From the IMG/VR virus record IMGVR_UViG_3300049489_000089, positions 1-29,295 of that record: 29,295 nucleotides of DNA, one strand, 5' to 3'. Below, in pieces: positions 5,746 through 26,555 of the stretch (its first letter is position 1; each line of letters starts with the position of its first letter). Made by a program: the position numbers and the translations under genes. Origin of the DNA: a virus. The notes beneath the pieces were generated by a model. It ran no database searches, had not been told where the DNA came from, and was given only the letters and a program-made list of their open reading frames with translations.

Positions 5746-5761
5746 ATAAAGGAAATATTTA

Positions 5762-7206: not shown

Positions 7207-7208
7207 CT

Positions 7209-8171
7209 ATGAAAATTAACCCCAACGAGCCTCAAGGGCTCATCAAAAGTACTGCTGACGGTCTTGGTATCCGGGTCACTCCTCGTGACTCGGTACCAAA
7301 GGAAGAAATCATCAACAACGCCTTGGAGAATATGAAGCTGTTTCCAAAGAACTGCTTTGTAGATAAATCAAGGCTGCATGATGAAACTGCTTGGATCGTC
7401 AGTGCAGGACCATCTCTTGAACGTCTGTTGAAGATGGGTTACTTGCAAAAGGAATGGTTCGAAGGCGACAACACTGGTCACAAGCTGTTCACTGTCAAGC
7501 ACGCCCTACCGATCCTTGCCAAGTACGGATTCAAGCCTCACTTCTGTGTTGTTCTTGACCCTCGTCCAATCCAAGGTGTCAGCACGCACGGTTACATTCG
7601 GGAAACCCTTTATTCAAAGGCACCGAAATCCACCAAGTTCCTTGTAGCGTCCATGACGCACTCAAGTGTTACCAAGTGGCTTATCCGTAACGGTTACGAA
7701 GTCTACGCTTGGCACAGTGCAGCCAACGGCTTAGTACCCACCAAGGAGGCTCCTAGCCCTCTTCCGGGCGTCAAAACCTTTATCCAAGGCGGTACTTGCA
7801 GTGCAACCCGAACCATCTCCCTAGCCCACTATATGGGCTTCAGGAAGGCCAATTTGGTTGCCTTTGACTCCTCCCTTGCAGGAACCCCTGCGAACAAGGA
7901 TGAGGTTGACATTATTGATGGCAAAGAGGTAAAGAAGTTCTGGACAACTTCCATCGGTGACTCCAAGGAGTTTTGGACCACCGGGGAGCTTATTGCCCAG
8001 CTTCAGGACCTTCAGATGTTCTTTTCCGATAACGTAGCGGATGTTGAACTCAACCTCGTGGGTACGGACAAGGATGATTCCCTTGCTGGTGCCCTTGCTG
8101 AGTCAATTCCAAACAAGACCAAACTTGGTCACTACAGGGACTTGTTCAAGACGTGGCAAAAAAGCACGTAA
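7209..8171 (+). CDS. DUF115/Maf-like protein (putative glycosyl- or phosphotransferase)
   Basis: The motif AWIVSAGPSLERLL (GPSLE at 67-71) and the strand CVVLDPRPIQG match DUF115, a family that includes the flagellin glycosylation factor Maf and the pterin pyrophosphokinase MptE. A second typical element is TFIQGGTCSATRTISLAHYMGF with LVAFDSSL downstream. In bacteria the Maf branch transfers nonulosonic acid sugars to flagellin; several phages carry orphan members of unknown role. Here it ends the sugar cassette and overlaps the phosphoesterase gene by 19 bases. The ribosome site is weak, so coupling to the upstream gene is likely. Family call is fairly firm; enzymatic activity is inference. 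Confidence 0.75.
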   Translation: MKINPNEPQGLIKSTADGLGIRVTPRDSVPKEEIINNALENMKLFPKNCFVDKSRLHDETAWIVSAGPSLERLLKMGYLQKEWFEGDNTGHKLFTVKHALPILAKYGFKPHFCVVLDPRPIQGVSTHGYIRETLYSKAPKSTKFLVASMTHSSVTKWLIRNGYEVYAWHSAANGLVPTKEAPSPLPGVKTFIQGGTCSATRTISLAHYMGFRKANLVAFDSSLAGTPANKDEVDIIDGKEVKKFWTTSIGDSKEFWTTGELIAQLQDLQMFFSDNVADVELNLVGTDKDDSLAGALAESIPNKTKLGHYRDLFKTWQKST

Positions 8172-8914
8172 CCCACTTGGTAATTGGAGATGCACACAGC
8201 ACTCCAAAGGTAAGTAATCGTAGATTTGATTGGTTAGCTAATTTCATCGAGGACAAACGTCCTGATGTCATTATCGATATAGGAGATTGGGGTGATTTTG
8301 ATTCTATCGGAAAGTACTCTAAAGGTACTAGAGCAGCTTGGGGACTCTCATTTAAAGAGGATGTTGCGTGTTTCAAAGATGCAACGAAGCGAGCTTTTGG
8401 AAGAATTGGATCAATTAAAGGATACCGACCTCGCATCATCCGTATTGGCGGAAATCATGAAGAGGGAAGAATTGATAAGTTTGTTAACGAAAATCCTGAA
8501 CTACTCGGAACAGTATCCCTTGACCTACTGGAACTCGGAGCGTATGGAGCACGATATGTACCTTTTCGTGAAGTCGCGATCATCGACGGAATCGCCTACA
8601 GCCACTACTTCTACGACAAGGATTCCCGATACTCAATAACCAATGCCAAGACTTTGTTGCAGCGTAAGTTCATGTCTTGTACGTGGGGACATTCCCACGT
8701 TCGTGACATGTGGGAAGGAGTAAGCGCAGATAAACGAAGGATTATCGCCTTGAATGCCGGGTGTTTCCTTGACCCGGATCAGCAAATGGGCTATGCAGGA
8801 CCACAAGGGAATGCCCGCTGGTGGTCTGGTCTGGTGCTCAAACAGGATGTCAACAACGGGTCGTATGACCCTCAATTCTTTGGTATCGACTATTTGAAGA
8901 GGAATTACTCATAG
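8153..8914 (+). CDS. Calcineurin-like metallophosphoesterase
   Basis: All metal-binding motifs of the family are visible: GDAH (Asp13, His15), DIGDW (Asp45), GGNHE (Asn101, His102), His151 in AYSHYF, and GHSH (His180, His182). It should hydrolyse a phosphoester using two metal ions in the cytoplasm; the substrate could be a nucleotide, nucleic acid end or phosphosugar. The GTG start at 8153 lies inside the DUF115 gene with AGGGA upstream; starting here places the first strand and Asp13 correctly. The stop shares one base with the next gene's GTG. The first half of the gene appears more A+T-rich (about 35% G+C in 8221-8280). Confidence 0.88.
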   Translation: MAKKHVTHLVIGDAHSTPKVSNRRFDWLANFIEDKRPDVIIDIGDWGDFDSIGKYSKGTRAAWGLSFKEDVACFKDATKRAFGRIGSIKGYRPRIIRIGGNHEEGRIDKFVNENPELLGTVSLDLLELGAYGARYVPFREVAIIDGIAYSHYFYDKDSRYSITNAKTLLQRKFMSCTWGHSHVRDMWEGVSADKRRIIALNAGCFLDPDQQMGYAGPQGNARWWSGLVLKQDVNNGSYDPQFFGIDYLKRNYS

Positions 8915-10864: not shown

Positions 10865-11498
10865 AGTAGTTGATTACGAATACCTGAGCCAGCGTTCCAA
10901 GGACTTCGTGGAAGCCATCAAGCGTGTGGAAAACAACTACACCATTGCCAAGCGCAGGGGTGAATACAAGCAGATCAATGGCTCAAGTGAGTGGCGCTGG
11001 TTCCCCGGAGCTTCTCCTGAAGGTGGTCTGCCTACCCTTGCTTGGGGGCACAAGCTGACTCAGAAAGAGTGGGCTGAGAAGAAGGTCACTTTCTTTGACG
11101 AGACTTTGAAGCAGCACGTTTCAAAGAACTTCAACTACGGTCTGACCGACGAGCAGGTTACTTATCTGCTCATGGATGACCTGAAGACGTCTGAAGACCT
11201 AGCTCGAAGTGATTGGAACAAGTACATTGGATGGGACCAGAAGCGTCCCTTTGAAGGACTCCCGGACAAGTATAAGGGTGTTCTGATTAATCTGACCTTC
11301 AATGCGGGAGCCTTGGCTAAGAAAGGCAAGTTTGTCTGGACTACAGTTGCCAAGGGTATTCTTGCCAACGACGACGTTACCGTCACAAAGGGGATGGTTA
11401 CGTCCTACAAGCGTCCTGACGGTGTTCGGGTAAGGCTTACAACCCGGGCAGTTGAAATTGCGAAGGGGCTTGGTCTACCTTGGCAGGCCCTTCAGTAA
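10845..11498 (+). CDS. Endolysin, T4-lysozyme-like (GH24-type muramidase)
   Basis: Cleaves host peptidoglycan at the end of infection. The N-terminal helix FVEAIKRVENN supplies the likely catalytic Glu29, and GLPTLAWGHKLT (Thr64, Gly68-His69) corresponds to the TIGxGHxLT motif of GH24 lysozymes. LTDEQVTYLLMDDL and LPDKYKGVLINLTFNAGAL are the usual following helices. About 20 extra residues lie between Glu29 and the GH motif compared with T4 lysozyme, and the middle catalytic Asp is not obvious. The ATG at 10845 is preceded by AGAGGG at good spacing; an upstream in-frame ATG at 10791 lacks support. There is no signal peptide, so a holin is needed. The 3' end overlaps the convergent PAS gene by 62 bases. 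Confidence 0.8.
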   Translation: MSDTTVKVVDYEYLSQRSKDFVEAIKRVENNYTIAKRRGEYKQINGSSEWRWFPGASPEGGLPTLAWGHKLTQKEWAEKKVTFFDETLKQHVSKNFNYGLTDEQVTYLLMDDLKTSEDLARSDWNKYIGWDQKRPFEGLPDKYKGVLINLTFNAGALAKKGKFVWTTVAKGILANDDVTVTKGMVTSYKRPDGVRVRLTTRAVEIAKGLGLPWQALQ

Positions 11499-12126
11499 AG
11501 TAAATGATTCCATTCCAGCCTATGACCTCTTTGTTGAAGTTGTAGGCTGGAGTGGCTACTCCGTGTACCGGAACGGGTTTTTCCGTAGCCAGATTGATTA
11601 GTCTGTAATAAAGATTGAAGTCTCTTTTCTGGGATATTGCCCGTTCCCACTCCCGCCCAACCAGCTCCCTGTCTTCTGGGTGGATGACATTCTCCCAATT
11701 GGTTCCAATAAAGTCGCTTAGGGAAGCTCCTGTGGACTTCCTAAGGGCTTCGTTTACCCACGTACAACGTCCTTTGACATCGCTGGACCAGATACCTGTC
11801 GTAACCGAGTCCAAAAGAAGCATACGCTGGGCTTCACTGATACTTACAGACGTCTCCAACCGATTCAACTGATCCTTGATCGAAGAACCCCCGTTGGGCT
11901 TGAGTTCTTTAATGATCTCGTCCAGCTTGGTATCCAAATGCTCCAACCGAGTAGGGGAACGGTAGATACTTGACACGAGATCGACAACGGGTTTGACTGT
12001 TGAATTGTACATGGGTATTGCCACCTGTTTGTAAAACGTAAATAGTATGGTTAAAAATGTAAGCAAAGCACCGATGGATGCAATACTCAAATGCTCCAGT
12101 AAGTAAGCCCAAATATTCTCTGGCAT
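11437..12126 (-). CDS. Membrane-anchored PAS-domain protein without an output domain
   Basis: Three parts are visible. Residues about 13-35 form one transmembrane segment (SIASIGALLTFLTILFTFY). Residues about 58-100 are a charged, probably coiled-coil region (LEHLDTKLDEIIKELK, then KDQLNRLETSVSISEAQR). Residues about 100-212 form a PAS domain: LLLDSVTTGIWSSDVKGRC, then WENVIHPEDRELV, then FNLYYRLIN and the closing strands VIGWNGIIYFTEG. No histidine kinase, GGDEF or DNA-binding domain follows. The PAS could sense a ligand, redox state or membrane state and signal through the membrane helix. It is the last gene of the minus-strand virion block and overlaps the endolysin tail-to-tail, so a role in lysis timing is one possible reading (inference). 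Confidence 0.82.
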   Translation of the reverse strand: MPENIWAYLLEHLSIASIGALLTFLTILFTFYKQVAIPMYNSTVKPVVDLVSSIYRSPTRLEHLDTKLDEIIKELKPNGGSSIKDQLNRLETSVSISEAQRMLLLDSVTTGIWSSDVKGRCTWVNEALRKSTGASLSDFIGTNWENVIHPEDRELVGREWERAISQKRDFNLYYRLINLATEKPVPVHGVATPAYNFNKEVIGWNGIIYFTEGPAKVDQAPSQFQLPGL

Positions 12127-12132
12127 AGAAAG

Positions 12133-15100
12133 CTACTCTTTTTCACCTAAGGTAATCGGATAACGACGTTCTTGTGCTGTAGGCTTCTTGATCTTTCCCG
12201 GATGTTTCTTCTGCCACAGACGCTCTTGAACGCTTGTGCGGAAGCCTCTCCAGAACTTGGAATCGAGCTTGATGTCATTTGCCTTGGCAAACTCCCTTAG
12301 CTCTTTTGTCATCTGATTACGAAGTTCCCTTCCGTATTTGTACTTCTCCGGGTCATCGTTAATCGTGCCTTGGTGCATGTAGAACTCGGCAGTAGCCACG
12401 GATTCGGCCAGACGGGATTTCCAAAGATTGAACTCCTGATTGGCACGCTGTTGGTAAAACAGCTTTTCTCGGGCTTCTGTCTGCTCTAGGGTTGTGAACC
12501 CAAGGGCCTTTGCACTGGTGTCAAAAGCCGTAATTTCATCAGGGTCTTTAAGTATTTTACCAGATTTGGTCTTGTAGGCTGACTCTGGGTCAACTACCGT
12601 CTGTACGGCCTTCATAGCGTCCTTGGCGGTCGAAGGGACCACGGACTGTGCCTTGTCCCACCAAGACCTATTCGGGTCTGTGAGGGCTCCCATGGCGTCT
12701 GTAAGGGCACGTCCCGGGACACCGCCGATATCCCCGAACTTCAGTTCGTCCTTCATAAGGCCAATCAGAAGGCTCTGGGCAATGACATCTTGGGCCATGC
12801 GGTCTGCCACATCGACCCCCGTAAGGGTGCTCAGGGTGCCTTTACGGAGCCACTGGGGGATTCCTGCCTCGGTCATCTGCATGTTGAGGTCCACGGCACG
12901 TCCGTTAACCTTCTTCTCGTACTCTTCGTACAAGGTTTTCCAAAGCTCGTAGGCAGGGATACCCGCTACGCCAGCAAGGCTTACGTAGGCGGCTGTGGTG
13001 TACAGACCCGCTATCACGCCTGCCTGCCCTTTGCGCCCACTGATCTGGTCAAAAAGAAGCTCAAGCATCTGCTGTGGGTAAGTCATGAATGGGAAGAACA
13101 CTGAACCCGGAAGACCACGCTGTAGTTCACCTCGACCAATCTTGCCAAATTCGGCATGGACAAGTCGCATGTTGTACATCGCAAGAGCCTGCTCTACGCG
13201 CATCTTGTCCTTGTTGTTTTCCCAGAAATACTGCCAATCATATTCCTTTTCGAGGTCTTTCAGAGCCTTGCGGGTAATCTCCGGGCTTTCGTCAAACATG
13301 CGACGGTAGGCCATGAATGTAGTTTTGCGGGTAAAGTTTTCCGCTGCAGAGATAAAGATACCTGCGTTGTTGACAATACCTCGGACCCCAGCTTCCACTG
13401 TTTGTGCAGTCTTGCCCATGTGTTCAGTGAAGTCAGTTTCAATCTCACGAGCAATAGCATCTTCAACCATCGAATGGCGGAAGTAAGCCGGATGATCGTT
13501 AAAGAACTGGAAATCTTCGTTCTCCCGGGTACGGTAGAAGTGGGCCTTGCGGCCTTCCGGACTCCTGCGTTCTACAAAGCTTGCGTAATCCTTCATTGCC
13601 TGAGACATGTACTTCAGTGAAGACAAAGGGTTCTTTGTGTAACCAATAAGGTTAGCCATAGACTGTGTAGGAAGCGTCACAAGCTGCAAAAGGGCAGACG
13701 AAGGACGATAACCCATTGTCCAGAAGAAGTTGAACCCGCGAAGGTATCCAAAGTCACTGGAAGGATCGTTCATGTAGTCGATGTAGTTGTTGGCAATATC
13801 TTTCAGCCTCGGGTCAATACCAGTTGACCTCAAAACATCTTTTTGATATTGTGACATGTCTAACGAGACAGCCTTACGGGCAATGGAGTTCTTCCAAGAG
13901 TTCTTGTAAGCATCCATAACCTTATCCCAGTTCTTGTTATAACCATCCACAAGAGGTTCATTCTCAGGGAGCATGTACTTGCCACGACCTTGTGCAAGAA
14001 TGTACTTCATGATATGGCTTTTGGTTGATCCAGCCTCATTGGAAAGGTCCTTAAGGAACTGGACCGGATCGTCTACTCCCGTGGCAAGCTTGTTAGCCAG
14101 CTTGATGTTGCCTTCAAGTCCAGTAGCAAGAAGGCTCTGGATCAGTTCCATTGAAAGCATACCGCGCTGAATGAACTTTGCAGCATCGTTGTGGGTAAGC
14201 TGACCGTGCGTAATTTCATAATCCTTTGGATTGTACTTGTTACGCAAGCCCATCTTGTCAATCTTTGATTGGACAAACTTGTCGTCAGGCAAACTCTTCA
14301 TCTTGAAACCAAAGACGTTATCTGTGTTGTCGATAACCTCCATGTGTTTAAGATCACCTGTCTTCTTGTCCTTCACCCAAATGACATAGTTACCCAAACG
14401 CATGTGGGGTACGTAAGCCTTCTTCGGATCAAGGATGTTGTTGATTGCACTAATTTCCGAATGAAAGGCTTCCAAGACTCCTTTGTCTCGAAGATACTTA
14501 TTCCTGAATTCAGGCAACGGATTACCGTCAATGCGATCACTCAGATTGGTAATCACATCCTTAAGCTGTTCAAGTGAAGAATTCTCGTCAAGGTTGTATT
14601 CTTTCTTGTAGTTGTTCAACAAACTACGAGTAACTTTGAGGTCTTCCCTTGGTCCTACCTTGTAGTAATCATTCAGATACTTAAGCATCTGGCTTGCGTC
14701 GTCATCCAAGACAATCTCGTTTCCGTTCTCGTCCTTCAGGATAACGCGATCCAAAGAATCCATTACCAAGTCCTGCTTCGTGTTACGAAAATGGTCAAGG
14801 ATGTCGTGAGCCTTATGAACCTTGTCCCAATCCTTGTTGGCAATGTTCTCAAAGATATTACGGAAACGGGTTGTGAATTCATCATCAACCTGCGCAGCAA
14901 TATCCTTCTGTTTAACAAAGATGTTGTGTGCTTTACCCATAAGAGGGTACTGGCGAGCCAGCTTCGGGATTGAGAAGATAAACGAAAGCTTTCCGATCAT
15001 TTCCCCCAACTGGTTCTTTTCAGCCGAAAGGAACGGGTCCTTGCCATCCCGACCACCACCTCCGGTCTTCGGAGGATTGGTAAAGCGGGGAGGAGGAGTT

Positions 15101-18100
15101 CCCCCGTTATCCATCGCAGCAGTTTCTTTGACTTGCTCAGCCTTGGCTTTAATACCAATATCGTCTGGATCGTTATTGCGATTGGCTTCTTCCACGATGC
15201 GGTCAAACATGACACCGCCTTGGCGAGCCTCGGGAGGCACTGCCTTGGAGTTGACTTCGAAAGTCTCTTGGCTGTCGTTGTATTCCAAGATGTCTTCAAG
15301 CTTGTTGAACTTGAGGTCTGCAAACTCCTTTTTCATCTTCTTGAAGGAGTTCTCGAAAGCATTGAATATCTTGTACTGACGAAGTTCCTTGAAGTCCTTG
15401 ACGTTTGCAGCAAACTCGTTCTTGAGGTACTTGGCAAAGGCAAGGGCTTCCATGTCGTCGGTAGAGAAGTTACGGGTATCCTTTTCAGACATACCGTCAA
15501 CCGTCTTGTACCAATCTTCAATGAACTTCCTGTTCTTGTTCAAGGCTTCAATGGTCTTTTCCGGAAGGAAAGAACGCATGTCCTTGTACCAGTTGACCAG
15601 ACCTTCTTCATTCAACTTACCCGGCTTGTCGATATTGAAAGCCGTGTGAAGCGAAGTCATAAGCTGATTGAAGGTAGCCTTTGGGAGTTCCTTGCCCGCA
15701 AGAAGCATGTTGAAGTTATCCTTGAACACCTTCGCAAGGTTAGGATGAACTTTCTGGAAGGCAGTCTCGATGATCTGCAACATCTTGACCCGCTGGATAA
15801 CAGCATCCTGCAGCTTCTTGGTTGCCTTGACAATTCGAGGCTTCTCGGGAATCTTGACGTTGGCCGACATTTCGGCAAAGGTCTTGAACATCTGGTTCAA
15901 GGCTGGACCTAAGTCCGGATTGGCTTTCAGGATGTCAGCATTGCGCTCTTGGGCAATCTTGTACAGCTCTGAACGCAAAGCATCCAAAGCCTGTCCCGCA
16001 ACACTATCCGGATCAGCTTCAGACCAAAGCTGCTTGGCTGTCTTGCCCTTTGGCTGGTTCTTTACGGGCTTGAATGAACTGTCGGACATCTCTTCAAGCT
16101 TCGGTTCATTCACAGATTTCTTGCGTGAATAGACGTACTTGCGTGCAATTTCACGAAGTTCTTCCGTGGATTTAGTCCCGGTCTTCAAAAGGTCTTGGAT
16201 CAACGGAGTCTTCATGATGCCGTCTACAACCTGCGCTTTGGTAAGCTTAGGGGTAGCTTTGGTTCCCGGCATGTTTGCAGCCTTGGTAAGAACCGTAGCA
16301 ATTTCTTTCGGTTTGTATTCCAGTAACCCTCGGATGTTTGGGTCACGACGCATACCCGCATACGGACCAAAGGGCTCTCCATCGACAGGAGGCTCTTCAA
16401 TGAACCTAGGCGGCTTAGTGTCATCAAACGCACGAATAGGCGGATCACCGGGACGTGTACGTATTTTTTTGTAAAGACTAGGACTAACAATATCGTGATT
16501 AAACACAATAAATTGACCGTCTGTTAAATTATTCGTGTAAGGCGCTCTCTGTTTGTTGAATTGTTTGGAGTCATAAAATCCTTCCGCAACATCAATAGCG
16601 TCAATACCTAGTCTTTTTAACTTATCCTTTAGTGTAGACATTCTTGCTTGTTCGGCTTTGGTGCCGTGCGCGTTCCAATTAACATCATCCATCATTTTAT
16701 GAACAGCGTCTTTTAAACGTGGTTTGCTAACAGGACCTACCAATCGATCATCTACACGACCTTTAGAGTCTACAAAAAAATCTGCTTCTCCCGGTGTTCC
16801 CTTTTTAATAATTTCTTCGTAAAGAGTAAATGGTTTAGTAACCTCGTCCGTGTAGCCCAGCATTTTGGCAAGTTTTTGAGCATCTTCAAAAGTGGAAATT
16901 TTGAAAATTCTAGCACTTGATTTCAAATATGATTTCAAAACTGTTTCATATTCAGCAGCACGTCGATCTCCTGCTGTTTCTCGGTCTAACCAAAATGAGT
17001 TAGGGTCTTTGGTGAAGTATGAACTGAAGTCGCCAAAATCACTATAGGCGTAGTGACGTTCTCCGGCCTCCGGGTCAAACTTGCCAGACTTTTTAATGCT
17101 ATCTGCATTTTTCTTGCTAGTGCCGTGATAAATATGAATAGGGCGCTCACCATCAAAAACGTGAGCCACATCTTCCACAGGTACACCCTCTTGTGCTGCG
17201 TATTGTTTCTTTTCGGCTTCATCCCTACGACGCTTCATAAGAGCCTCTGCAAGCTTCTTGCGAGGGTTCTGGGAAAGCATCTGGTTGGCATTCTTGATGT
17301 TGTTGCGTATACGCTCTTCGGCTACTGGGCGACGGTACAGGGAGCCATACTGGTTGACTTCTTCAATGACATTCTTGTCTACGAAGTTCTCAAACTGGTC
17401 AAAGACCTGCTTCCTGATCTGTTCCGGGTACTTAGCTCCATTCTTTTCAAGATCACGTTGGACATTCATCTTGTACAGCTTGCGAATGATGTCGTCCGAG
17501 AACCCCTTGACCACAAGGTCGTTGTAACCGAACTGGTCAGCCAGTGCAGCAGCCTTGGTAAGGATTTCTTCAGTGCTTGAGTGCTTCTGAGGAAGAGCAT
17601 CTTGGTCTTGGTAAAGAACACCATTCTTGGTGCGCTTCAGGGCATCTTCACGAGAACGGACAAACTTGGCCTTGCGGGCGGCGTCAATGAGGTCTTGGTC
17701 CGTCCAAGCCTTCGGAGACTCCTTACCCATCATCTGCCGCCAATGGTTATCAAAAGCCGTCAGGCCATCCGTGTCGTTGCCGTTAGGGTCCTTGTATTTG
17801 ATGTTTGCAAGGTAGTCCGCCGCTTCCACTCGATTGTTAATACCCATAGTATCTGTAGGGTTTCTAAAGATCAAGTTCTCTGGCTTGGGCAACGCAAGGG
17901 GTTCTGGTCCTGATTCGTCGGTTCCGTAGATAATCGGTCCCGTATCTGCTTCCATTCCCTTTGCCGCTTCGGATACAGGGGTAGATTCCCTGCGCTCAGG
18001 GGCAGTAGGCCCCGATGGAGGAGCCTTCTTTGGAGGTGCTTGGTATTTATAGCCCTTGTAGACGCCAAAGGGAACGCCTACAAGGGTGCCTCTTACAACC

Positions 18101-19158
18101 GAGTCCAAGTACTCCAACTTGGCGTTGTCATCCAACATGGGCATGTCAGCGTTAAGCCGTGACAGCCCTGAAGCCCCAAGAGAAGCAAACGCATTCGTTC
18201 CAGTTACATCTGCAAGGTTACCTAAAACTTTACGGCTCATTGACGAGCCAAGGCCCACACCCCACTTTTCAAGGGTCTTGAGCACGGGACCAGCATAAAG
18301 GATAGAGTCGATGGGAAGGGACTGGAACCCGGCTGCAGCAGTACCTAGTACCCCGGCCTTGACCCAATCAATGTTGTCCCGAGGGTTCTCAACCCCAGCC
18401 AGCTTCATTTGCTCCACCTGACGGTCAGCAAACTGGGCAATGGTAATGGGAGCAGTGATGCCTGTAGCCCCTAGGAAGGTCCCTAGGCGGGCTGCACCTT
18501 GCCCTGCGGCATACCTACCAGCGGCACCACCAACGCCGCCTACGGCCAAGTATGGGGCTGCTGCGCCCATGGTTTGAAGGGCATAGTCGTAAAGCTTCCC
18601 TTCGTCCCAAGCAGCAGTGACATCCGGGACCATAAACTGGCCGTAATTCTTGTTATATTCCTCTTTAAGGGAGTCTGCGTACTGGTGCCATTCTTCTCCC
18701 AAGTCCTCCAGACCTACCCCGGAAAGAGAATGGGCAAGGATGGACGAAGCAGCCGCAGGGAGGTTGTAAAGAGCCTCCCCTTTGGTTGCCCCCCAAACTC
18801 CGGGGGAATTGTGGTCCCAGATGGCCTCCAAGACCTCTTCAGGGGACTTGTTGGCGTCAATGTTGTACCGCTTGCCGTCCCCTGCAAACTCGTAGATCAT
18901 CTTGCTCGGGTCGGATTTAAGGGGTTCGATGGGCTTAAGAATCTGGTCCGGGGAGTCTACTCCAAAGAAACGCTTGGAGAAAGCGGGAGCCAAATCTTCT
19001 TCTTCGGAGGCAGTAACATTAGGATTAGCAGCAGATGGCATTCCCTTGAGGACTTCTTGAAGAGGATCAACCGTTGCGGGGCGGGCTGGAAACGTAGATG
19101 AAAGTACGTCGTTAACAACCCCTTGTGCAAAGGGACTCAAATCAGTAGGAGATGCCAT
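12133..19158 (-). CDS. Giant polyvalent-type internal virion protein (2341 aa) with ADP-ribosyltransferase-like domain
   Basis: Probably packaged in the virion and injected with the DNA. The N-terminal third includes an Ala/Gly-rich hydrophobic stretch (about residues 190-245), as seen in ejection proteins. Residues about 670-895 look like an ADP-ribosyltransferase of the H-Y-E/Q group: IYHGTS (His678), SSYFTKDP (Tyr714) and GQFIVFNHDIVSP (Gln882). The middle is long, helical and charged, with a GGGGRDGKD linker. The C-terminal part has a membrane-suited segment (AGVIAGLYTTAAYVSLAGVAG, about 2050) and the GFNFFWTMGYRPSSALLQ region typical of large polyvalent phage proteins. AAGGAA lies about ten bases before the ATG. 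G+C is markedly lower in the ART-like part. Polyvalent assignment is good; the domain's activity is inferred. Confidence 0.8.
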   Translation of the reverse strand: MASPTDLSPFAQGVVNDVLSSTFPARPATVDPLQEVLKGMPSAANPNVTASEEEDLAPAFSKRFFGVDSPDQILKPIEPLKSDPSKMIYEFAGDGKRYNIDANKSPEEVLEAIWDHNSPGVWGATKGEALYNLPAAASSILAHSLSGVGLEDLGEEWHQYADSLKEEYNKNYGQFMVPDVTAAWDEGKLYDYALQTMGAAAPYLAVGGVGGAAGRYAAGQGAARLGTFLGATGITAPITIAQFADRQVEQMKLAGVENPRDNIDWVKAGVLGTAAAGFQSLPIDSILYAGPVLKTLEKWGVGLGSSMSRKVLGNLADVTGTNAFASLGASGLSRLNADMPMLDDNAKLEYLDSVVRGTLVGVPFGVYKGYKYQAPPKKAPPSGPTAPERRESTPVSEAAKGMEADTGPIIYGTDESGPEPLALPKPENLIFRNPTDTMGINNRVEAADYLANIKYKDPNGNDTDGLTAFDNHWRQMMGKESPKAWTDQDLIDAARKAKFVRSREDALKRTKNGVLYQDQDALPQKHSSTEEILTKAAALADQFGYNDLVVKGFSDDIIRKLYKMNVQRDLEKNGAKYPEQIRKQVFDQFENFVDKNVIEEVNQYGSLYRRPVAEERIRNNIKNANQMLSQNPRKKLAEALMKRRRDEAEKKQYAAQEGVPVEDVAHVFDGERPIHIYHGTSKKNADSIKKSGKFDPEAGERHYAYSDFGDFSSYFTKDPNSFWLDRETAGDRRAAEYETVLKSYLKSSARIFKISTFEDAQKLAKMLGYTDEVTKPFTLYEEIIKKGTPGEADFFVDSKGRVDDRLVGPVSKPRLKDAVHKMMDDVNWNAHGTKAEQARMSTLKDKLKRLGIDAIDVAEGFYDSKQFNKQRAPYTNNLTDGQFIVFNHDIVSPSLYKKIRTRPGDPPIRAFDDTKPPRFIEEPPVDGEPFGPYAGMRRDPNIRGLLEYKPKEIATVLTKAANMPGTKATPKLTKAQVVDGIMKTPLIQDLLKTGTKSTEELREIARKYVYSRKKSVNEPKLEEMSDSSFKPVKNQPKGKTAKQLWSEADPDSVAGQALDALRSELYKIAQERNADILKANPDLGPALNQMFKTFAEMSANVKIPEKPRIVKATKKLQDAVIQRVKMLQIIETAFQKVHPNLAKVFKDNFNMLLAGKELPKATFNQLMTSLHTAFNIDKPGKLNEEGLVNWYKDMRSFLPEKTIEALNKNRKFIEDWYKTVDGMSEKDTRNFSTDDMEALAFAKYLKNEFAANVKDFKELRQYKIFNAFENSFKKMKKEFADLKFNKLEDILEYNDSQETFEVNSKAVPPEARQGGVMFDRIVEEANRNNDPDDIGIKAKAEQVKETAAMDNGGTPPPRFTNPPKTGGGGRDGKDPFLSAEKNQLGEMIGKLSFIFSIPKLARQYPLMGKAHNIFVKQKDIAAQVDDEFTTRFRNIFENIANKDWDKVHKAHDILDHFRNTKQDLVMDSLDRVILKDENGNEIVLDDDASQMLKYLNDYYKVGPREDLKVTRSLLNNYKKEYNLDENSSLEQLKDVITNLSDRIDGNPLPEFRNKYLRDKGVLEAFHSEISAINNILDPKKAYVPHMRLGNYVIWVKDKKTGDLKHMEVIDNTDNVFGFKMKSLPDDKFVQSKIDKMGLRNKYNPKDYEITHGQLTHNDAAKFIQRGMLSMELIQSLLATGLEGNIKLANKLATGVDDPVQFLKDLSNEAGSTKSHIMKYILAQGRGKYMLPENEPLVDGYNKNWDKVMDAYKNSWKNSIARKAVSLDMSQYQKDVLRSTGIDPRLKDIANNYIDYMNDPSSDFGYLRGFNFFWTMGYRPSSALLQLVTLPTQSMANLIGYTKNPLSSLKYMSQAMKDYASFVERRSPEGRKAHFYRTRENEDFQFFNDHPAYFRHSMVEDAIAREIETDFTEHMGKTAQTVEAGVRGIVNNAGIFISAAENFTRKTTFMAYRRMFDESPEITRKALKDLEKEYDWQYFWENNKDKMRVEQALAMYNMRLVHAEFGKIGRGELQRGLPGSVFFPFMTYPQQMLELLFDQISGRKGQAGVIAGLYTTAAYVSLAGVAGIPAYELWKTLYEEYEKKVNGRAVDLNMQMTEAGIPQWLRKGTLSTLTGVDVADRMAQDVIAQSLLIGLMKDELKFGDIGGVPGRALTDAMGALTDPNRSWWDKAQSVVPSTAKDAMKAVQTVVDPESAYKTKSGKILKDPDEITAFDTSAKALGFTTLEQTEAREKLFYQQRANQEFNLWKSRLAESVATAEFYMHQGTINDDPEKYKYGRELRNQMTKELREFAKANDIKLDSKFWRGFRTSVQERLWQKKHPGKIKKPTAQERRYPITLGEKE
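16450..17150 (-). other. ADP-ribosyltransferase-like domain region of the giant protein, low G+C island
   Basis: Within the 2341-residue gene, this segment encodes about residues 670-900. The candidate NAD-binding triad is His678 (IYHGTS), Tyr714 (YFTKDP) and Gln882 (DGQFIVF). Hand-counted G+C is 182 of 480 bases (38%) for 16501-16980, against 32 of 60 in each of three flanking samples (15901-15960, 15961-16020, 17281-17340). The frame is unbroken through both edges. The boundaries given are approximate. Confidence 0.7.
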
Positions 19159-19177: not shown

Positions 19178-22100
19178 TTATAAGGATGTGCCCGGGTCCT
19201 GAACAGGGGTGATCGGCCAACCTTCTTGTTGTAAATATTCAACTTCCTCAGGAAGCAAACTTGATGGGTCATCTACGGCTTTCTTGATAAGTCCTTCAAG
19301 GATAGCCCTTTTGCTTCCTGCAGCACCTTTCAAGTCAATCATGTCAAGAGCATTCTTAAGTTTCAATTCCTGAAGGTCCTGACGATACCCGGCTTGCGCC
19401 TGAGCCAAGGCCAGCTTGTTGGACGGGTCCATGGCGTCCATCTGGGCTTGCTTGTATCGGATATCGAGAATTTCCTTGAGTTTATCAGATTTTTCTTTCT
19501 GATCCCGGAATTGTTCGATTTCACGATCCTTTAAAGAGGCAAGCCCCGCTTCACCAAGGGCTTCGCCAAAACTGCCCTTTGAGGCAAGAAGGGACAGACC
19601 AAGCTTCAGCAGGGGTTCGTTGACGTCGCTGAACAACCCAAAGACCTTGCCCTTTTCTGGCTTCTTGTACGCAAGATACTCTTCAAGCATCTTGTTGTAC
19701 TCATTCTCCAAGGGACTTCCATCGCCTGAAGGACCTCCAGAGGAGCCTCCCGGAGCACCCGGAGCACCCGGAACGCCACCACCACCGGGGACTTCTTCGC
19801 CCTGCTGCTCTCCGGTCGGATAACCGATCTTGTCACCCATTTCCTTGTAGAAAGCGTCTACGGGGTCTTCATTAGGTCCCCACTCTCCGAGAGCATCCAT
19901 GTAAAGGTTCGGATTGGGCTTGTAGTCCCAGCCCTTTTCGTCAATAGGAAGAACAATCTTCTGGTCAGTCGGACGCTTACCGCTTGTGGAAGGTGTTGCC
20001 CAACCACCCGTGATGTCGTGCATGAAGTCATCCATCCAACCACCAATCTTAGGGTCTCTTGCACGTTCAATCGCTTTTTCAAAGATGCCCGGTTCGCGAG
20101 TCTTCCAATCCGCCGGGTTTTCAGGCATACGTAGAATGTTAGGACCACGCTTCGGCTTTTCCGGAATGGTTACATTCGGGTTAGTAACTACATTGACCTT
20201 GTTTGGAGTCAAGTTAGCCCTGTTGCCTTTCGGAATGGACTTGTACAGATCAATCTCGTCGGCTGTAACCTCCGGAGGAGCAGGCATGAACTTCTCCCAA
20301 TCTTCCAAAGGAAGGACAAGAGAGTCGTCACCATACTGCCTACGGAAGACTTCATCCCAATCTTCAAGAGGTGCACGATAAAGGGGTTCGTCAGTTGAAC
20401 CGCCTTTGGCGAACTTCTTGACATAACCGCCACCGGAGAAGCCCATACCACCTTTGGTATAAGAGTCACCAATGATCTTGATCGGATTAAAGGTCGTAGT
20501 ACCACCGTCAATGGTTTCACCGCCACGAGAAGGATCGTTCAAAGGAATGTCCTCGGGGGTAAGTTCATCAAGGGTCTTCCCTTTGTACTTCTCCCGAAGA
20601 TTATTGTAAGCCTTCTCCTTCATTGCGCGATACTGTGCAAACGTAAGATTCGGGTTTTTATCGTATGACCAAGGGTTTCCTTTACGAGTAGCCGCAGATT
20701 TTAACCCAGCCTTGTACAAAACGTCCTTCATGGGAGTGTCTTTGTACTTCTCATCGTAGAGCAAAGGAATGGCACTAGGCGCACCATTGTACCCAAGATG
20801 ATGTGCAAGATACAAATTCAACTCTGTAATTGGTACATTTGCTTTTTTCAAGTTGTTATAAGACTGCGGCAGGTAATCAGTTTTGTAGACGTAATCTACT
20901 GCTTCCTGACTAGGGAGAACGCTGGCAAGACGTTCATCACCGCTTTCGTACTTTTTAATCTCGCTACGAACAACAGGGTTGATATTCAGCTTTTTTCGTA
21001 TCTCTGGATCAATCCTTGATACAGCTTCGTTCCAAGTTTTTGGAGTGAATTGATACTGAGAAAAAGCCTGTGTATCTGGGTTCGTGGAGAGCAGTTTGTT
21101 CTTAATACGATTATCCTGCTCGTTAGCCTTCGTACCTTCAAGGAAAAGGTCTTCGTTGACATTATCCCACATACGCGAATTAGAGTAAGTACGCGGTACT
21201 ACTGGCGTAGACGACATACCCTGCTTTTCAACGTTAGGGTCCATTGGAAGTGAATCAATCACAGCTTGTGGTGATTCAAAGCGCGGGGTTTGAGCGGCGC
21301 TAGCGCGACCTTGGTTACGAGCTTGCGCTTTCGTAATGGTACCTTCGCCAAAGCTTTCGGCTGCTACGTCAGCAAGAACGTCATCACGACCAAGGTTCTC
21401 GAAGTCAGGCTTGAAAGTACCGTGATTTGAGTTCATCCCATAGTAAATAGCGGCCAAAGGGTCGATACCCTCCGCAGGTACTCGCGCTTGGGATTTCTTG
21501 CGTCCTTTGAAGCTGCTGCCGCCTTCTACGAAATTGCCTTCCTGAAATTTCTTTACCGCACCACCTTCGCGGTACTTGAAATTAGCGCGAGTATTTTCAT
21601 TGTCGTACTTGCTTGGTCGTCCCGGACCATTCAGTCGTTTCTTATCAAGCTCTTCTTTCGGTGAAGGATTGAAATACTCCATTACCGGATTGGGATTACG
21701 CTTGGTGAATTCAGGAAACGGATTACGCTGGTCTAGTGCTTCGACTGCGCGCAAGTGGTTCATGACGGCACGCACTTCACGTTCGTCAATGGGGCCTGCA
21801 AGGTTTCCATCAGCACCGACATCCAAAGGTCCCATTTCGGGCTGCGGTTCTTTGAGCATGTCAGCAATCATTGCATCCAAAGGATTGGCTGATTTCTTCG
21901 GAGCAGTGCTAAGACGCTTTTCAATCTCATCGTTCTTGGACAGAAGAGGACGCTTTTTAACATAATCCTTTTGCTTGGCAATTGTCTTGAGCAAATCCAA
22001 GTCAGCCTGAAGATACGACAAATCCCCCAACTCTTCTCCATAACGCGGATAGTCATTGCGAATGTGGCTCTGGAGACCACGATAAGGTTTCTTCTTTGGT

Positions 22101-23641
22101 GCTGCATCGAGACCAAGAAGCGCAAGCCAGTTTGAGTCATCTTCCTCAGGAACATTCAATTCCCAACCTTCTTGGGGACCTACGTGACCACCGCCCGCAA
22201 AGTTTACATTGGCAGGACCACCGGGACCGGGAATACCCGGGTTCAACGGAGTCACATTGACATTTGGAGCTTGTGGTGTAAAAGTCTGTGTACGCGGGCG
22301 CAGGAAGTTCGGGTTCATCTGATTAAACGAATCCAGCGGAGAACGTCCCGGTGCAGCCTGACCAACTTGGTTCAAGCGCATGTTCTGGATAAACGAATCC
22401 CAGTTAAAAGGTTGTTTCTGAACTACAGGCAGCAGCTCCGCTTCTTGCTCTTGCGGGTTTTGGTTCTTTTTTCCTTTTGTAAACCAAGTTGCCAACGGAC
22501 CAAACTTCGGTTCCATTTTATAACCCGAAGCTAACATACCGCCAATGAATCGTTTATTCTCGGGCTCTACGCTGTCCATCCAATCTTGATAATCAGAATA
22601 CGCAGCAAGAGGGTCTTCCCCAGCAGCAATGGAAAGCCCTGCTTTAATCATTCCGCCGTCAGCGTACTTCTTTACAAGACCACCTTTGGCAATCTTATTT
22701 ACTGGCGCATCAGGACGATACGTAGTTTGCTGACCAACAGATTGTGCACCTGCGGCCAAACTTGCAGCAGCAGCCGGGTTGCCACTCATGATGCCTGCAG
22801 CGGCAAGACCGATACCAGCAAGGGTCTTGATCGGAGAGTCAGTCTGGGTTGTCTCAGTAGTGCTGTTCTTGGTGAAAAGATCGCGAGGATACTGAGCTGC
22901 AATGGTACTAAGGAACGACGCCTTGTTGATGTCGTCCTGATCTTCTCGCATGAATTCGGAGTAACCAAAGTCCAAAAGGGCCTGATCCCGGGTACGCCCC
23001 GTAAGCCCCGTAGACATAAGGTTCTGGATGTCCTGTGTGTTATAAGCCTGACCTTGGCGGGCTACGTTAAGAGCATCAGAGATATTGCCACGCTGGAGGT
23101 CCTTGGACTTGAACCAGTTGCCCATGCCCTTGTCAAAGGCATCGGAGTACGTAGAACTGGATACGTCACGGGCTGACTTCAACAGTTCAGCCAGATTGGC
23201 TCCTTCAAGGACACCGTGACGCAGACCACCAAAAGCCCCCGACATAGCTGCCGTAGAGCCAATCTTGGTCATGTTGGTGTCAGAGGTCTCGCGAAGTCGA
23301 TCAAGCGAATTCCCAAGTACGTAATTAACGTAAGGGTTAATAAATTGGTCTAGTTCAGGTTGTGTAGGCGCACCGTTGGAAGCAAGGTTGTTAGCTGTGG
23401 CTTGTCCCGCCATGTCAACAAGAGGCTGGTACATCCCGGCATTCATTGCTGCTGCCTGTGTACCTGCCTGCTCGTTTGCACTCAGTTCGGCAATGCGCGG
23501 AGCTTGATATTGAGTAAAGCCCTGCGAACCAGCCGAAGCGGCTTTGTCAAGCGACATATTCAGGAAGTTCTGAAAGTTCTGAGGGACCTTCGTGCTCTGT
23601 GTAGTAGAAGATTTTGTTTTAGAACTGAATAATCCGCTCAT
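19178..23641 (-). CDS. Large virion/ejection protein (1487 aa) with lytic-transglycosylase-like domain
   Basis: N-terminal residues 1-260 (TAAMSGAFGGLRHGVLEG within) match a common podovirus internal or tail protein start. A motif of the kind GGxVKK(F/Y)AxGG recurs at scattered sites: AKGGLVKKYADGGMIK (about 315), REGGAVKKFQEG and SGGGYVKKFAKGGS. Residues about 835-1010 look like a lytic transglycosylase: Glu835 in FLEGTKANEQD, YQFTPKTW (863-870) and LNLYLAHHLGYNGA (about 945), suggesting local wall digestion during DNA ejection. A Gly/Pro collagen-like linker lies near 1280-1305, and the C-terminus is coiled-coil. AAGGAG lies six bases before the ATG. It shares an operon with the polyvalent protein. 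The LT-like segment is lower in G+C (about 40% in 20821-21060) than 21361-21420 (50%). Confidence 0.8.
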   Translation of the reverse strand: MSGLFSSKTKSSTTQSTKVPQNFQNFLNMSLDKAASAGSQGFTQYQAPRIAELSANEQAGTQAAAMNAGMYQPLVDMAGQATANNLASNGAPTQPELDQFINPYVNYVLGNSLDRLRETSDTNMTKIGSTAAMSGAFGGLRHGVLEGANLAELLKSARDVSSSTYSDAFDKGMGNWFKSKDLQRGNISDALNVARQGQAYNTQDIQNLMSTGLTGRTRDQALLDFGYSEFMREDQDDINKASFLSTIAAQYPRDLFTKNSTTETTQTDSPIKTLAGIGLAAAGIMSGNPAAAASLAAGAQSVGQQTTYRPDAPVNKIAKGGLVKKYADGGMIKAGLSIAAGEDPLAAYSDYQDWMDSVEPENKRFIGGMLASGYKMEPKFGPLATWFTKGKKNQNPQEQEAELLPVVQKQPFNWDSFIQNMRLNQVGQAAPGRSPLDSFNQMNPNFLRPRTQTFTPQAPNVNVTPLNPGIPGPGGPANVNFAGGGHVGPQEGWELNVPEEDDSNWLALLGLDAAPKKKPYRGLQSHIRNDYPRYGEELGDLSYLQADLDLLKTIAKQKDYVKKRPLLSKNDEIEKRLSTAPKKSANPLDAMIADMLKEPQPEMGPLDVGADGNLAGPIDEREVRAVMNHLRAVEALDQRNPFPEFTKRNPNPVMEYFNPSPKEELDKKRLNGPGRPSKYDNENTRANFKYREGGAVKKFQEGNFVEGGSSFKGRKKSQARVPAEGIDPLAAIYYGMNSNHGTFKPDFENLGRDDVLADVAAESFGEGTITKAQARNQGRASAAQTPRFESPQAVIDSLPMDPNVEKQGMSSTPVVPRTYSNSRMWDNVNEDLFLEGTKANEQDNRIKNKLLSTNPDTQAFSQYQFTPKTWNEAVSRIDPEIRKKLNINPVVRSEIKKYESGDERLASVLPSQEAVDYVYKTDYLPQSYNNLKKANVPITELNLYLAHHLGYNGAPSAIPLLYDEKYKDTPMKDVLYKAGLKSAATRKGNPWSYDKNPNLTFAQYRAMKEKAYNNLREKYKGKTLDELTPEDIPLNDPSRGGETIDGGTTTFNPIKIIGDSYTKGGMGFSGGGYVKKFAKGGSTDEPLYRAPLEDWDEVFRRQYGDDSLVLPLEDWEKFMPAPPEVTADEIDLYKSIPKGNRANLTPNKVNVVTNPNVTIPEKPKRGPNILRMPENPADWKTREPGIFEKAIERARDPKIGGWMDDFMHDITGGWATPSTSGKRPTDQKIVLPIDEKGWDYKPNPNLYMDALGEWGPNEDPVDAFYKEMGDKIGYPTGEQQGEEVPGGGGVPGAPGAPGGSSGGPSGDGSPLENEYNKMLEEYLAYKKPEKGKVFGLFSDVNEPLLKLGLSLLASKGSFGEALGEAGLASLKDREIEQFRDQKEKSDKLKEILDIRYKQAQMDAMDPSNKLALAQAQAGYRQDLQELKLKNALDMIDLKGAAGSKRAILEGLIKKAVDDPSSLLPEEVEYLQQEGWPITPVQDPGTSL
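20614..21139 (-). other. Lytic-transglycosylase-like domain within the 1487-aa protein
   Basis: Covers about residues 835-1010. The candidate general acid is Glu835, with QYQFTPKTW and AHHLGYNGA as the matching core motifs of virion-associated transglycosylases. The usual Ser-Ala-x-Gly between the Glu and the QFTP motif is degenerate here (NPDTQAFSQ), so substrate binding may differ. Boundaries are approximate. Confidence 0.65.
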
Positions 23642-24743: not shown

Positions 24744-26555
24744 TTACTGGTCTCCGTCGGGCATTATACCTGCACGCCACAGTCCGAGACGATAATTACT
24801 CATGGCATTAGACACTTCAATACGAAGGGACATTTGACGCGCTCTTCCACGAAGAGAGATTTTCTCGGTATTCGGTCCAATTGTATAAGGCCCTTTAACC
24901 GTAACTTGTCCCATGGGGCTGCGCTTCAGCTTGATGTACGCACGCATGTAATTGCCGTCCAACTCCGTTACGTCAGGGATAATACGATCAATAAAGGTCA
25001 TAGGCTGACCTTCTTCAATGTCAAAGAACCCGCTTTCGATGTAACTTGGCAGCTCTGCACCGTCTGCGTCGTGTCCGTATTCGTGGCTAAAAGCTGCCTC
25101 AGATACAGCCGTAGCAATGGGGTAGTCCAAAAGATTTGAGTCAACCCACGTAGAACGAGCAAGATTGCCGTCCGCCCAAGTACCGTCTACGTAGTTATAA
25201 ATAACGTAGCGATTGTTTTCGTTGGAATTGACAGTTGGGTAGAACCACCAAATTTCATTGAACTCGGAATTGGTACCACAATAGATTTTCTCTTTTTGGT
25301 CATAGTTGATTGCGTAGTCAGAACCGGGTTCAAACACAGCCTTGTGGATTGAACAAGGAAGATTCTGAACTGAACCGTCGTATCGAAAGAACGAACGCTT
25401 GCCCATCCAGTGCACCACACCATTGACATCGACCGCTGCATTCGGAGCAATCAGACCGCAAGCAATACCTACACGATCTTGGGTGAAATAGAACGGAGCA
25501 CCTTTGTACGTAATGACGTGTGCGCCTTCATCGGTAAAAGCCACGATTTCTTTCTTTGATTTGACTGCACCGACTACGTAAGAGCCTGAATTGAAGCGGA
25601 AGCCACCCGCTGCGTTTGTGACGGCAGGAGACCATTCAGTATAGTTTTCTTGCTGGGACCAACGACCTACAAGCGGATCGAAATCACCACCGAAAGCACT
25701 TGTACCAAGAAGCATCATGTGTCGTGCTTCTTCAGTAATCAACATCACATTGCTTTGTGTGGGAATTGCAGAACTGGCAACGGAGCACCGAGTATTCAGT
25801 CCATCAGACTTATCCCAACGATAAACCTTGCCTCCTTTCAGAAGAGCCAAAAGGTCTTCGCCCCACGTATCAAAAGTCCACAGACGCATGTTGTCTGTCA
25901 AAGACCCAGCAACACCTATACCGTAAGCACCTGCACCGTAAGCGCCTGAGCCGTAGCCCGAGGCAGGTTCGTTGTTCTGCCTTCCTGTTTCAAGAAGGTA
26001 CGAGACAGTAAGAGCGCCTCCGATCTTTGTCTTGGCTGTTGTATTGGCAATAGAACAGTTTCCATTAACCGAGACAACGTAATTGTTGGCATTGGCGCTG
26101 GTAACTTCCATAATGCCGTGAAGGTCAAGCCCTGCATCAGAAACAGAAGTGAAAACTACGTAGTCGCCTGCTACGGCTTGATGACCCGCATCGGATACTT
26201 TTACCCGGGTAGTATTCGAAGCGTAGGTATTGATTGCAGAAGTTTCAGTTCCCGTAGCTCGTATAGGAGTTACGTCATACCAATCTCCTGAGTTGTAGAT
26301 AAACAACCCTTTGTGAGTACCAATACCGTAGTACTTGTCACCGTCAAGAGCTGCCCACGTTAAGGCTTCGCGAGCAACACCTCGGAAGTTATTGTCGTGC
26401 GAAAGCGACAACCAACCACCGAGCTTCTCGGGGTTTCCTTTGTGGAATCGTACTTTATCTCCGTCTACCCATTGCCCCTTGGCTTGATATGTCGTGATGT
26501 CACGATTAATACCGTTCTGGATTTCAATGGGTTTAAGTTTGGTGTCGCCGGGCAT
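24744..26555 (-). CDS. Tail nozzle/hub protein, P22 gp10-like
   Basis: Forms the lower tail of short-tailed phages and keeps packaged DNA in place. The N-terminal INRDITTYQAKGQWVDGDKV with KLGGWL matches the packaged-DNA stabilisation protein family. A Tyr/Gly repeat (GYGSGAYGAGAYGIG) and successive strand-turn units with Trp/Asp-Gly (LWTFDTWGEDLLAL, VVHWMGKRSFFRYDG) suggest a beta-propeller body. The length of 603 aa is in the range for such nozzle proteins. The ribosome site is weak; the start at 26555 lies ten bases after the upstream stop. Neighbouring fibre and adaptor genes support the call. Confidence 0.78.
   Translation of the reverse strand: MPGDTKLKPIEIQNGINRDITTYQAKGQWVDGDKVRFHKGNPEKLGGWLSLSHDNNFRGVAREALTWAALDGDKYYGIGTHKGLFIYNSGDWYDVTPIRATGTETSAINTYASNTTRVKVSDAGHQAVAGDYVVFTSVSDAGLDLHGIMEVTSANANNYVVSVNGNCSIANTTAKTKIGGALTVSYLLETGRQNNEPASGYGSGAYGAGAYGIGVAGSLTDNMRLWTFDTWGEDLLALLKGGKVYRWDKSDGLNTRCSVASSAIPTQSNVMLITEEARHMMLLGTSAFGGDFDPLVGRWSQQENYTEWSPAVTNAAGGFRFNSGSYVVGAVKSKKEIVAFTDEGAHVITYKGAPFYFTQDRVGIACGLIAPNAAVDVNGVVHWMGKRSFFRYDGSVQNLPCSIHKAVFEPGSDYAINYDQKEKIYCGTNSEFNEIWWFYPTVNSNENNRYVIYNYVDGTWADGNLARSTWVDSNLLDYPIATAVSEAAFSHEYGHDADGAELPSYIESGFFDIEEGQPMTFIDRIIPDVTELDGNYMRAYIKLKRSPMGQVTVKGPYTIGPNTEKISLRGRARQMSLRIEVSNAMSNYRLGLWRAGIMPDGDQ

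What the first reader, a model, noticed from the sequence alone, without database searches (positions are those of the whole stretch)
16450..17150. ADP-ribosyltransferase-like module spliced into a giant polyvalent virion protein
The H-Y-Q candidate triad (His678, Tyr714, Gln882) and a clear drop to about 38% G+C, with 53% in flanking samples, point to a mobile effector domain inserted into a conserved ejection protein. If injected, it would modify host proteins or nucleic acids at the very start of infection.
Basis: partly seen in the sequence, partly recalled or inferred. Interest (0 to 1): 0.78.

Follow-up and report, generated by a model that had tools for sequence, protein, structure and literature searches.

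The report
Toxin-like enzyme module in phage protein
A giant protein of an uncultured phage, probably carried in the virus particle and injected into the bacterium, contains a previously uncatalogued enzyme-like module (an ADP-ribosyltransferase) that also occurs as a separate gene in other phages; the general theme is known, and the module is an old resident of this protein rather than a fresh insertion.

Summary
The 2341-aa gene at 12133-19158(-) contains an ART-like region (aa ~670-905) with His678, Tyr714 and Gln882. GC3 drops to 0.29 there against 0.525 expected (z -7.2).

The ART reading is well supported by sequence. All three residues are invariant in a family found here: a full-length relative (58% identical) with the domain at the same site, and ~365-aa standalone proteins (11 contigs, ~28% identical, E ~1e-24) encoded beside portal genes in other phages. 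The family aligns in register with polyvalent-protein ARTs. It lies below Pfam's ART-PolyVal cut-off, and AlphaFold/Foldseek was inconclusive.

"Recently spliced in" is not supported. The relative has the domain at the same site with the same low GC3, although synonymous sites are nearly saturated. The standalone genes are also AT3-rich relative to their neighbours, so low GC3 travels with the ART family and is no insertion scar. Mobility over longer times is supported: distant giants lack the ART, and the relative carries a ParB-like module next to it that the window lacks.

Best explanation: a virion-borne polyvalent protein delivering an H-Y-Q ART at entry. Delivery, activity and target are inferred. 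New member of a known kind.

The parts
12133..19158 (-). Giant gene, 2341 aa (P0001): large polyvalent-type virion protein
   Evidence: single open frame; C-terminal part matches NCBIfam PLxRFG tail protein, E 4e-17, below its whole-protein cut-off; 58% identical full-length relative L009:8042-15781
16441..17187 (-). ART-like domain, aa 658-906 (core 670-905, 16444-17151)
   Evidence: conserved in L009 at 49-50% and in standalone proteins at ~28%; profile comparison with polyvalent ARTs score 43 vs at most 19.7 in 200 column shuffles
17125..17127 (-). His678 codon (strand-1 YHGT motif)
   Evidence: invariant in A5
17017..17019 (-). Tyr714 codon (strand-2 YFT motif)
   Evidence: invariant in A5
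16513..16515 (-). Gln882 codon, position of the catalytic Glu in H-Y-E ARTs (QFIVF)
   Evidence: invariant in A5; equivalent position is E, Q or H in polyvalent ARTs
16423..16998 (-). Low-GC3 segment aa 721-912
   Evidence: change-point analysis, GC3 0.26 inside, 0.56 outside
16402..16407 (-). Junction aa 918/919 where relative L009 carries ~245 extra residues including a ParB-like domain
   Evidence: alignment; PF02195 ParB_N E 4e-4 on the L009 segment, below cut-off
12370..13206 (-). C-terminal conserved region aa 1985-2263 (PLxRFG/tail-700 match)
   Evidence: NF032893 E 4e-17; shared with Vibrio phage VS-ABTNL-3 gp24, 22% over 485 aa, and L083
14392..14409 (-). PLxRFG-like motif PHMRLG, aa 1584-1589
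   Evidence: aligned with PRMRFG of the Vibrio phage group; reading it as the PLxRFG motif is inference
19178..23641 (-). Upstream 1487-aa gene, N-terminal match to DNA ejection protein
   Evidence: phrog_4287 E 3.9e-11 over aa 5-292
24744..26555 (-). Virion structural / stabilization protein gene that places the phage near DSL-LC04, HTVC023P and CRP-902
   Evidence: phrog_3287 E 2e-62; 33.7% over 98% to DSL-LC04; 79% to the L009 phage

Best explanation
The giant gene encodes a polyvalent protein of the internal virion/ejection class in a podovirus-like phage of the HTVC023P/DSL-LC04 kind. Its C-terminal PLxRFG-type part and its N-terminal part are the conserved scaffold. Residues ~670-905 are an ADP-ribosyltransferase module of the H-Y-[EDQ] type with Gln at the third position, belonging to a subfamily without a Pfam or PHROG model. 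Most likely it is packed in the head with the other ejection proteins, enters the cell with the DNA, and transfers ADP-ribose from NAD+ to a host protein or nucleic acid early in infection. The module was present in the common ancestor of this phage and its relative, and is exchanged between phage lineages over longer times. Shown: the domain, its conserved residues, its family, its occurrence in two gene contexts, its age relative to L009, and its low GC3. Inferred: fold, catalysis, packaging, injection and target.
For: Triad invariant across three contexts. Standalone homologues at E ~1e-24, encoded beside the portal gene and, in L106, between terminase and portal, a position that PMC9503650 links with head-packaged ARTs. 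Profile-profile match to polyvalent ARTs with landmarks in order (YHGT, YF, GIDAID/GYDG, QFIVF), score 43 vs at most 19.7 in 200 shuffles. Scanning the whole giant, only windows covering aa ~670-720 match the ART profile. PF18760 finds the L009 domain weakly (13.1 bits, E 0.0065; 13.8 bits), and KptA-family models, also ART superfamily, find the window's YHGT region weakly. Upstream gene is ejection-protein-like; C-terminal PLxRFG match. Precedent: ARTs are the commonest protein-modifying domains in polyvalent proteins (PMC5512222).
Against: The window domain itself does not match PF18760 and the standalone proteins do not either. The ART set used for profile comparison was chosen with a YHGT...YFT pattern taken from this window, so those two motifs are not independent (the GxDG and QFIVF landmarks are). 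The standalone sequences alone score no better than column shuffles against that set (22.7 vs a shuffle maximum of 23.0). The AlphaFold model is weak (pLDDT 59, pTM 0.59), with no significant Foldseek match. Gln in place of Glu can lower catalysis in other ARTs (own knowledge). No virion proteomics for this phage.
Confidence: 0.72

Rival explanations
1. A degenerate ART fold: the Gln882 form no longer catalyses transfer and serves as a binding or structural module (for example binding NAD+, ADP-ribose or nucleic acid) within the ejection apparatus.
For: Third position is Gln, not Glu or Asp; other polyvalent ARTs have His there. No fold or activity is proven.
Against: His, Tyr and Gln are all kept across three gene contexts at 26-50% identity, as are other YHGT and YF residues; unused active sites usually drift. 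Gln is an accepted variant of the H-Y-[EDQ] clade (PMC9503650).
Confidence: 0.17
2. A recently acquired foreign cassette: the low G+C marks a domain freshly inserted from an AT-rich donor into this phage's ejection protein.
For: Sharp GC3 drop, z -7.2.
Against: The relative has it at the same site with the same low GC3, z -6.2; fourfold sites are as diverged in the domain as in the flanks (0.39 vs 0.33-0.43 identical, 0.27-0.30 expected by chance); standalone homologues are AT3-rich relative to their own neighbours, also in a 52% GC contig.
Confidence: 0.06
3. Not an ART: an unrelated conserved structural domain with chance YHGT and YF motifs.
For: No Pfam hit over cut-off; fold search without significant match.
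Against: Several landmarks in the right order with shuffle control, location-specific match within the giant, weak PF18760 and KptA-model hits at the same place, triad conservation.
Confidence: 0.05

Closest known systems
ART domains of polyvalent proteins (Tox-ART-HYD2 clade; Pfam PF18760 ART-PolyVal; Iyer et al. 2017, PMC5512222)
   Same: Module inside a giant, probably injected phage protein; YHGT, YF, GxDx and xVF landmarks in order; neighbouring polyvalent-type modules (ParB-like in the relative, PLxRFG part)
   Different: Third residue Gln rather than the Asp described for that clade; long insert before the GxD strand; below the PF18760 cut-off
T4 Alt (injected ADP-ribosyltransferase)
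   Same: Proposed logic: virion ART delivered with DNA, acting at entry
   Different: Alt is an R-S-E clade ART (PMC5512222) and a separate protein, not part of a polyvalent ejection protein
Giant last structural gene of Synechococcus phage MinM2 (2803 aa, LPD38, weak ART-PolyVal)
   Same: Giant gene at the end of a related structural cassette with an ART-like region
   Different: No detectable overall similarity at E 1e-3; HExxH sites present
Vibrio phage VS-ABTNL-3 gp24 (1790 aa) and L083 giant
   Same: Homologous C-terminal region
   Different: No ART match; carry an HEMGH putative peptidase site instead
KptA/Tpt1 RNA 2'-phosphotransferase
   Same: ART superfamily; weak match around the YHGT strand
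   Different: H-H-h clade; here the second residue is Tyr, as in macromolecule-modifying ARTs

Membership tests
ART superfamily, H-Y-[EDQ] clade | His in strand 1, Tyr in strand 2, E/D/Q in the last core strand | tested here: met
   H678, Y714, Q882 invariant in 9 sequences
ART superfamily, H-Y-[EDQ] clade | Homology to known ARTs over the core | tested here: met
   profile comparison, score 43, probability 86, 0 of 200 shuffles above 19.7; template set motif-selected, a partial circularity
ART superfamily, H-Y-[EDQ] clade | ART fold (split beta sheet) | tested here: inconclusive
   model pLDDT 59, pTM 0.59; no Foldseek match at E <= 0.001
ART superfamily, H-Y-[EDQ] clade | NAD+-dependent ADP-ribosyl transfer | not testable with these tools
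   needs a bench assay
Pfam PF18760 ART-PolyVal | Score above the curated cut-off (31.2 bits) | tested here: not met
   no match in the window; 13.1-13.8 bits in L009; none in standalone proteins
Polyvalent protein (Iyer et al. 2017) | Very large phage protein combining disparate domains | tested here: met
   2341 aa with ART-like region and PLxRFG C-terminal part; relative adds a ParB-like domain; each domain rests on below-cut-off matches
Polyvalent protein (Iyer et al. 2017) | Virion-borne and injected with DNA | not testable with these tools
   inferred from position after an ejection-protein-like gene
KptA/Tpt1 | H-H-h active site and score above cut-off | tested here: not met
   second residue is Tyr714; 12-16 bits against cut-offs of 26 (Pfam) and 231-239 (NCBIfam)
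T4 Alt/VIP2 | R-S-E active site | tested here: not met
   H-Y-Q here; R-S-E definition from PMC5512222

The most novel reading that the evidence does not exclude
AT-rich third positions are an actively maintained property of phage-delivered ART effector modules, independent of phage composition and of gene context: a GC3 deficit of about 0.2-0.3 is kept inside a giant ORF and in stand-alone genes, through near-saturating synonymous divergence and across backgrounds of 40-52% GC. This would reflect selection on translation or mRNA of an effector sequence (or perpetual exchange within an AT-rich effector pool) rather than recent transfer, and would mean that low G+C cannot be read as an insertion scar in such proteins.
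Probability: 0.3. Interest if true: 0.6.

Novelty: new member of a known kind. Interest (0 to 1): 0.42.

Why it matters
It adds an ART subfamily without a Pfam or PHROG model, seen both as a module of a giant polyvalent protein and as a gene beside the portal gene, which makes it a good case of a phage effector reused in two virion contexts. It also cautions that an abrupt low-G+C block inside a phage gene need not be a recent insertion: here the composition belongs to the module and is kept over long times. If confirmed biochemically, it would extend Alt-like first-minute ADP-ribosylation to a group of aquatic podovirus-like phages.

Tried and rejected
Direct Pfam, PHROG, NCBIfam and PDB sequence searches of the domain gave no significant ART hit. 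tblastn of the domain against cultured phages and plasmids found nothing, nor did the standalone protein. Patterns from the giant found no close relative by single sequence; only the L009 contig by ART sequence and by alignment. No relatives in 84,980 bacterial and archaeal species genomes (pattern-based, so only moderately sensitive). AlphaFold with two sequences failed (pLDDT 35). The second job was sent with general ART rows just before the closer standalone family was recognised, so the better alignment (A5) could not be folded. Foldseek gave nothing in the PDB; in BFVD several top hits were polyvalent or ART-PolyVal-like proteins, but at E >= 0.019 and with a model whose alignment already held such ARTs, so I give it no weight. 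A profile of A5 against the PDB gave no ART; the A4 profile, mostly PF18760 members, did reach PARP12/15 and other H-Y-E ARTs weakly. Considered and rejected: recent insertion and KptA membership (Tyr in place of His).

Full report
What is there. The window is the whole of a 29,295-base IMG/VR virus record. On the minus strand it carries a structural cassette: a virion/stabilization protein (24744-26555, phrog_3287 E 2e-62), an acetyltransferase-like gene, a 1487-aa protein whose N-terminus matches a DNA ejection protein family (E 3.9e-11), and then the 2341-aa giant gene 12133-19158. The nearest cultured phages by the stabilization protein are DSL-LC04, HTVC023P, CRP-902, HTVC027P and MinM2 at 29-38% identity. 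In MinM2 and in Vibrio phage VS-ABTNL-3 the tail/ejection region also ends with a giant gene.

Checking the observation. His678, Tyr714 and Gln882 are at the stated places. GC falls to 0.38-0.40 over about 600 bases. The fall is at third positions: GC3 0.293 in aa 671-905 against 0.525 expected, z -7.2; best segment aa 721-912. The quoted 53% flank holds on the N-terminal side; the other side is 0.47-0.49.

Relatives. Direct searches gave no ART hit, so relatives had to be found by patterns. The domain and the whole giant each found one contig, IMGVR_UViG_3300011116_000448, with a 2579-aa homologue of the giant, 58% identical overall. It has the ART-like region at the same site (49-50%) and, directly behind it, about 245 extra residues with a ParB-like domain (PF02195 E 4e-4, below cut-off); the window runs straight on at that point. 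Its stabilization protein is 79% identical to the window's, so the giant evolves faster than that neighbour.

The ART family. A pattern for Y-H-G-T-x4-A-x2-I-x2-S-G-x-F found 11 contigs with a protein of about 365 aa (one copy cut off by the contig end) that matches the window/L009 profile at E about 1e-24, about 28% identical. In the two contigs examined, the gene next to it encodes a portal protein, and in L106 it lies between the terminase large subunit and the portal; other contigs show neighbours of the same sizes. His, Tyr and Gln are invariant across the nine sequences aligned. I could not detect the portal and major head proteins of L106 in the L009 phage or the cultured relatives, nor the window's stabilization protein in the standalone contigs, so they look like a different lineage; these searches have unknown sensitivity and most contigs are short.

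Is it an ART? For: (a) a profile of 19 polyvalent-protein ARTs, scanned over the giants, hits aa 671-721 of the window giant, and in hhalign scans only windows covering that part stand out; (b) the whole family against 25 such ARTs gives hhalign score 43, probability 86, while 200 column shuffles reach at most 19.7, with strand-1 YHGT, strand-2 YF, GIDAID/GYDG and QFIVF in order; (c) PF18760 finds the L009 domain weakly, E 0.0065 per genome, and KptA models find the window's YHGT region weakly. Limits: the ART set was picked with YHGT...YFT, so these two motifs are partly circular; the window lies below any Pfam detection; the standalone sequences alone score no better than shuffles against this set, their link being through the window/L009 profile; the model is weak and fold searches empty. 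I put the ART assignment at about 0.9, as an H-Y-Q subfamily outside PF18760 as now drawn.

Is it inserted? Not recently. Site and composition are shared with L009 (GC3 0.275, z -6.2), and fourfold third bases are 39% identical in the domain against 33-43% elsewhere, chance being 27-30%: domain and flanks have been apart about equally long. In L009 the low GC3 extends beyond the ART, through the ParB-like insert (best segment aa 647-1228). The standalone genes are AT3-rich against most neighbours: 0.16-0.26 against 0.39-0.48 for the flanking terminase and portal genes, and 0.33 against 0.63-0.68 in the 52% GC contig L115; some more distant genes in these contigs are also low, 0.25-0.31. Among 19 non-redundant polyvalent ARTs, 14 have lower GC3 than their own ORF (Wilcoxon p 0.014; six below z -3, one above +3; not corrected for phylogeny). 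So low GC3 follows the module. Within one ORF the expression level is the same, so weaker translational selection on a lowly expressed gene cannot explain the window case; maintained selection or repeated exchange within an AT-rich pool remain open.

Modularity over longer times is supported: the Vibrio phage and L083 giants share the C-terminal part but lack an ART match and have an HEMGH site, and the ParB-like module is present or absent beside the ART between the two closest giants.

How it probably works. By the precedent of polyvalent proteins (PMC5512222) and head-packaged ARTs (PMC9503650), the giant is carried in the virion, enters with the DNA, and the ART modifies a host macromolecule with ADP-ribose at entry. 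Packaging, injection, activity and target are inferred. The Gln at the third position is within the H-Y-[EDQ] definition but leaves room for a non-catalytic binding module, the main rival.

Novelty. The theme, an ART inside an injected giant phage protein, is known since 2017. New here are the subfamily, its two gene contexts, and the lasting AT3 bias. I file it as a new member of a known kind.

Noticed in passing
window 82-2331 (+): Ribonucleotide reductase large-subunit gene interrupted by an intein with a LAGLIDADG homing endonuclease (PF14528 E 9e-13, intein splicing domain E 3e-5). The reductase match starts at profile position 60, so the N-terminal part is missing or encoded elsewhere.
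   Followed up: partly
window 11437-12126 (-): Gene directly downstream of the giant encodes a PAS-fold domain (PF00989 E 7e-12) with a part matching phrog_9869 and, weakly, a holin family; a PAS sensor at the end of a phage structural operon is unusual.
   Followed up: no
window 4479-8914 (+): Cluster of sugar-nucleotide-type genes: cytidylyltransferase fused to a mannose-6-phosphate isomerase C-terminal domain, methyltransferase, MptE-like protein, and a sub-threshold calcineurin-like phosphoesterase.
   Followed up: no
L009 giant protein aa ~919-1162: ParB-like domain (GEGNHRL motif, PF02195 E 4e-4) directly behind the ART in the relative, absent from the window; a possible module-exchange site.
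   Followed up: partly
L102, L105-L108, L112, L113, L115, L117-L119: Standalone H-Y-Q ART genes of ~365 aa next to portal genes have about half the GC3 of the flanking terminase and portal genes, in AT-rich and GC-richer contigs alike.
   Followed up: partly
L037, L062, L054: Other polyvalent ART modules with very strong GC3 deficits against their own ORF (z -7.7, -8.2, -6.0).
   Followed up: no
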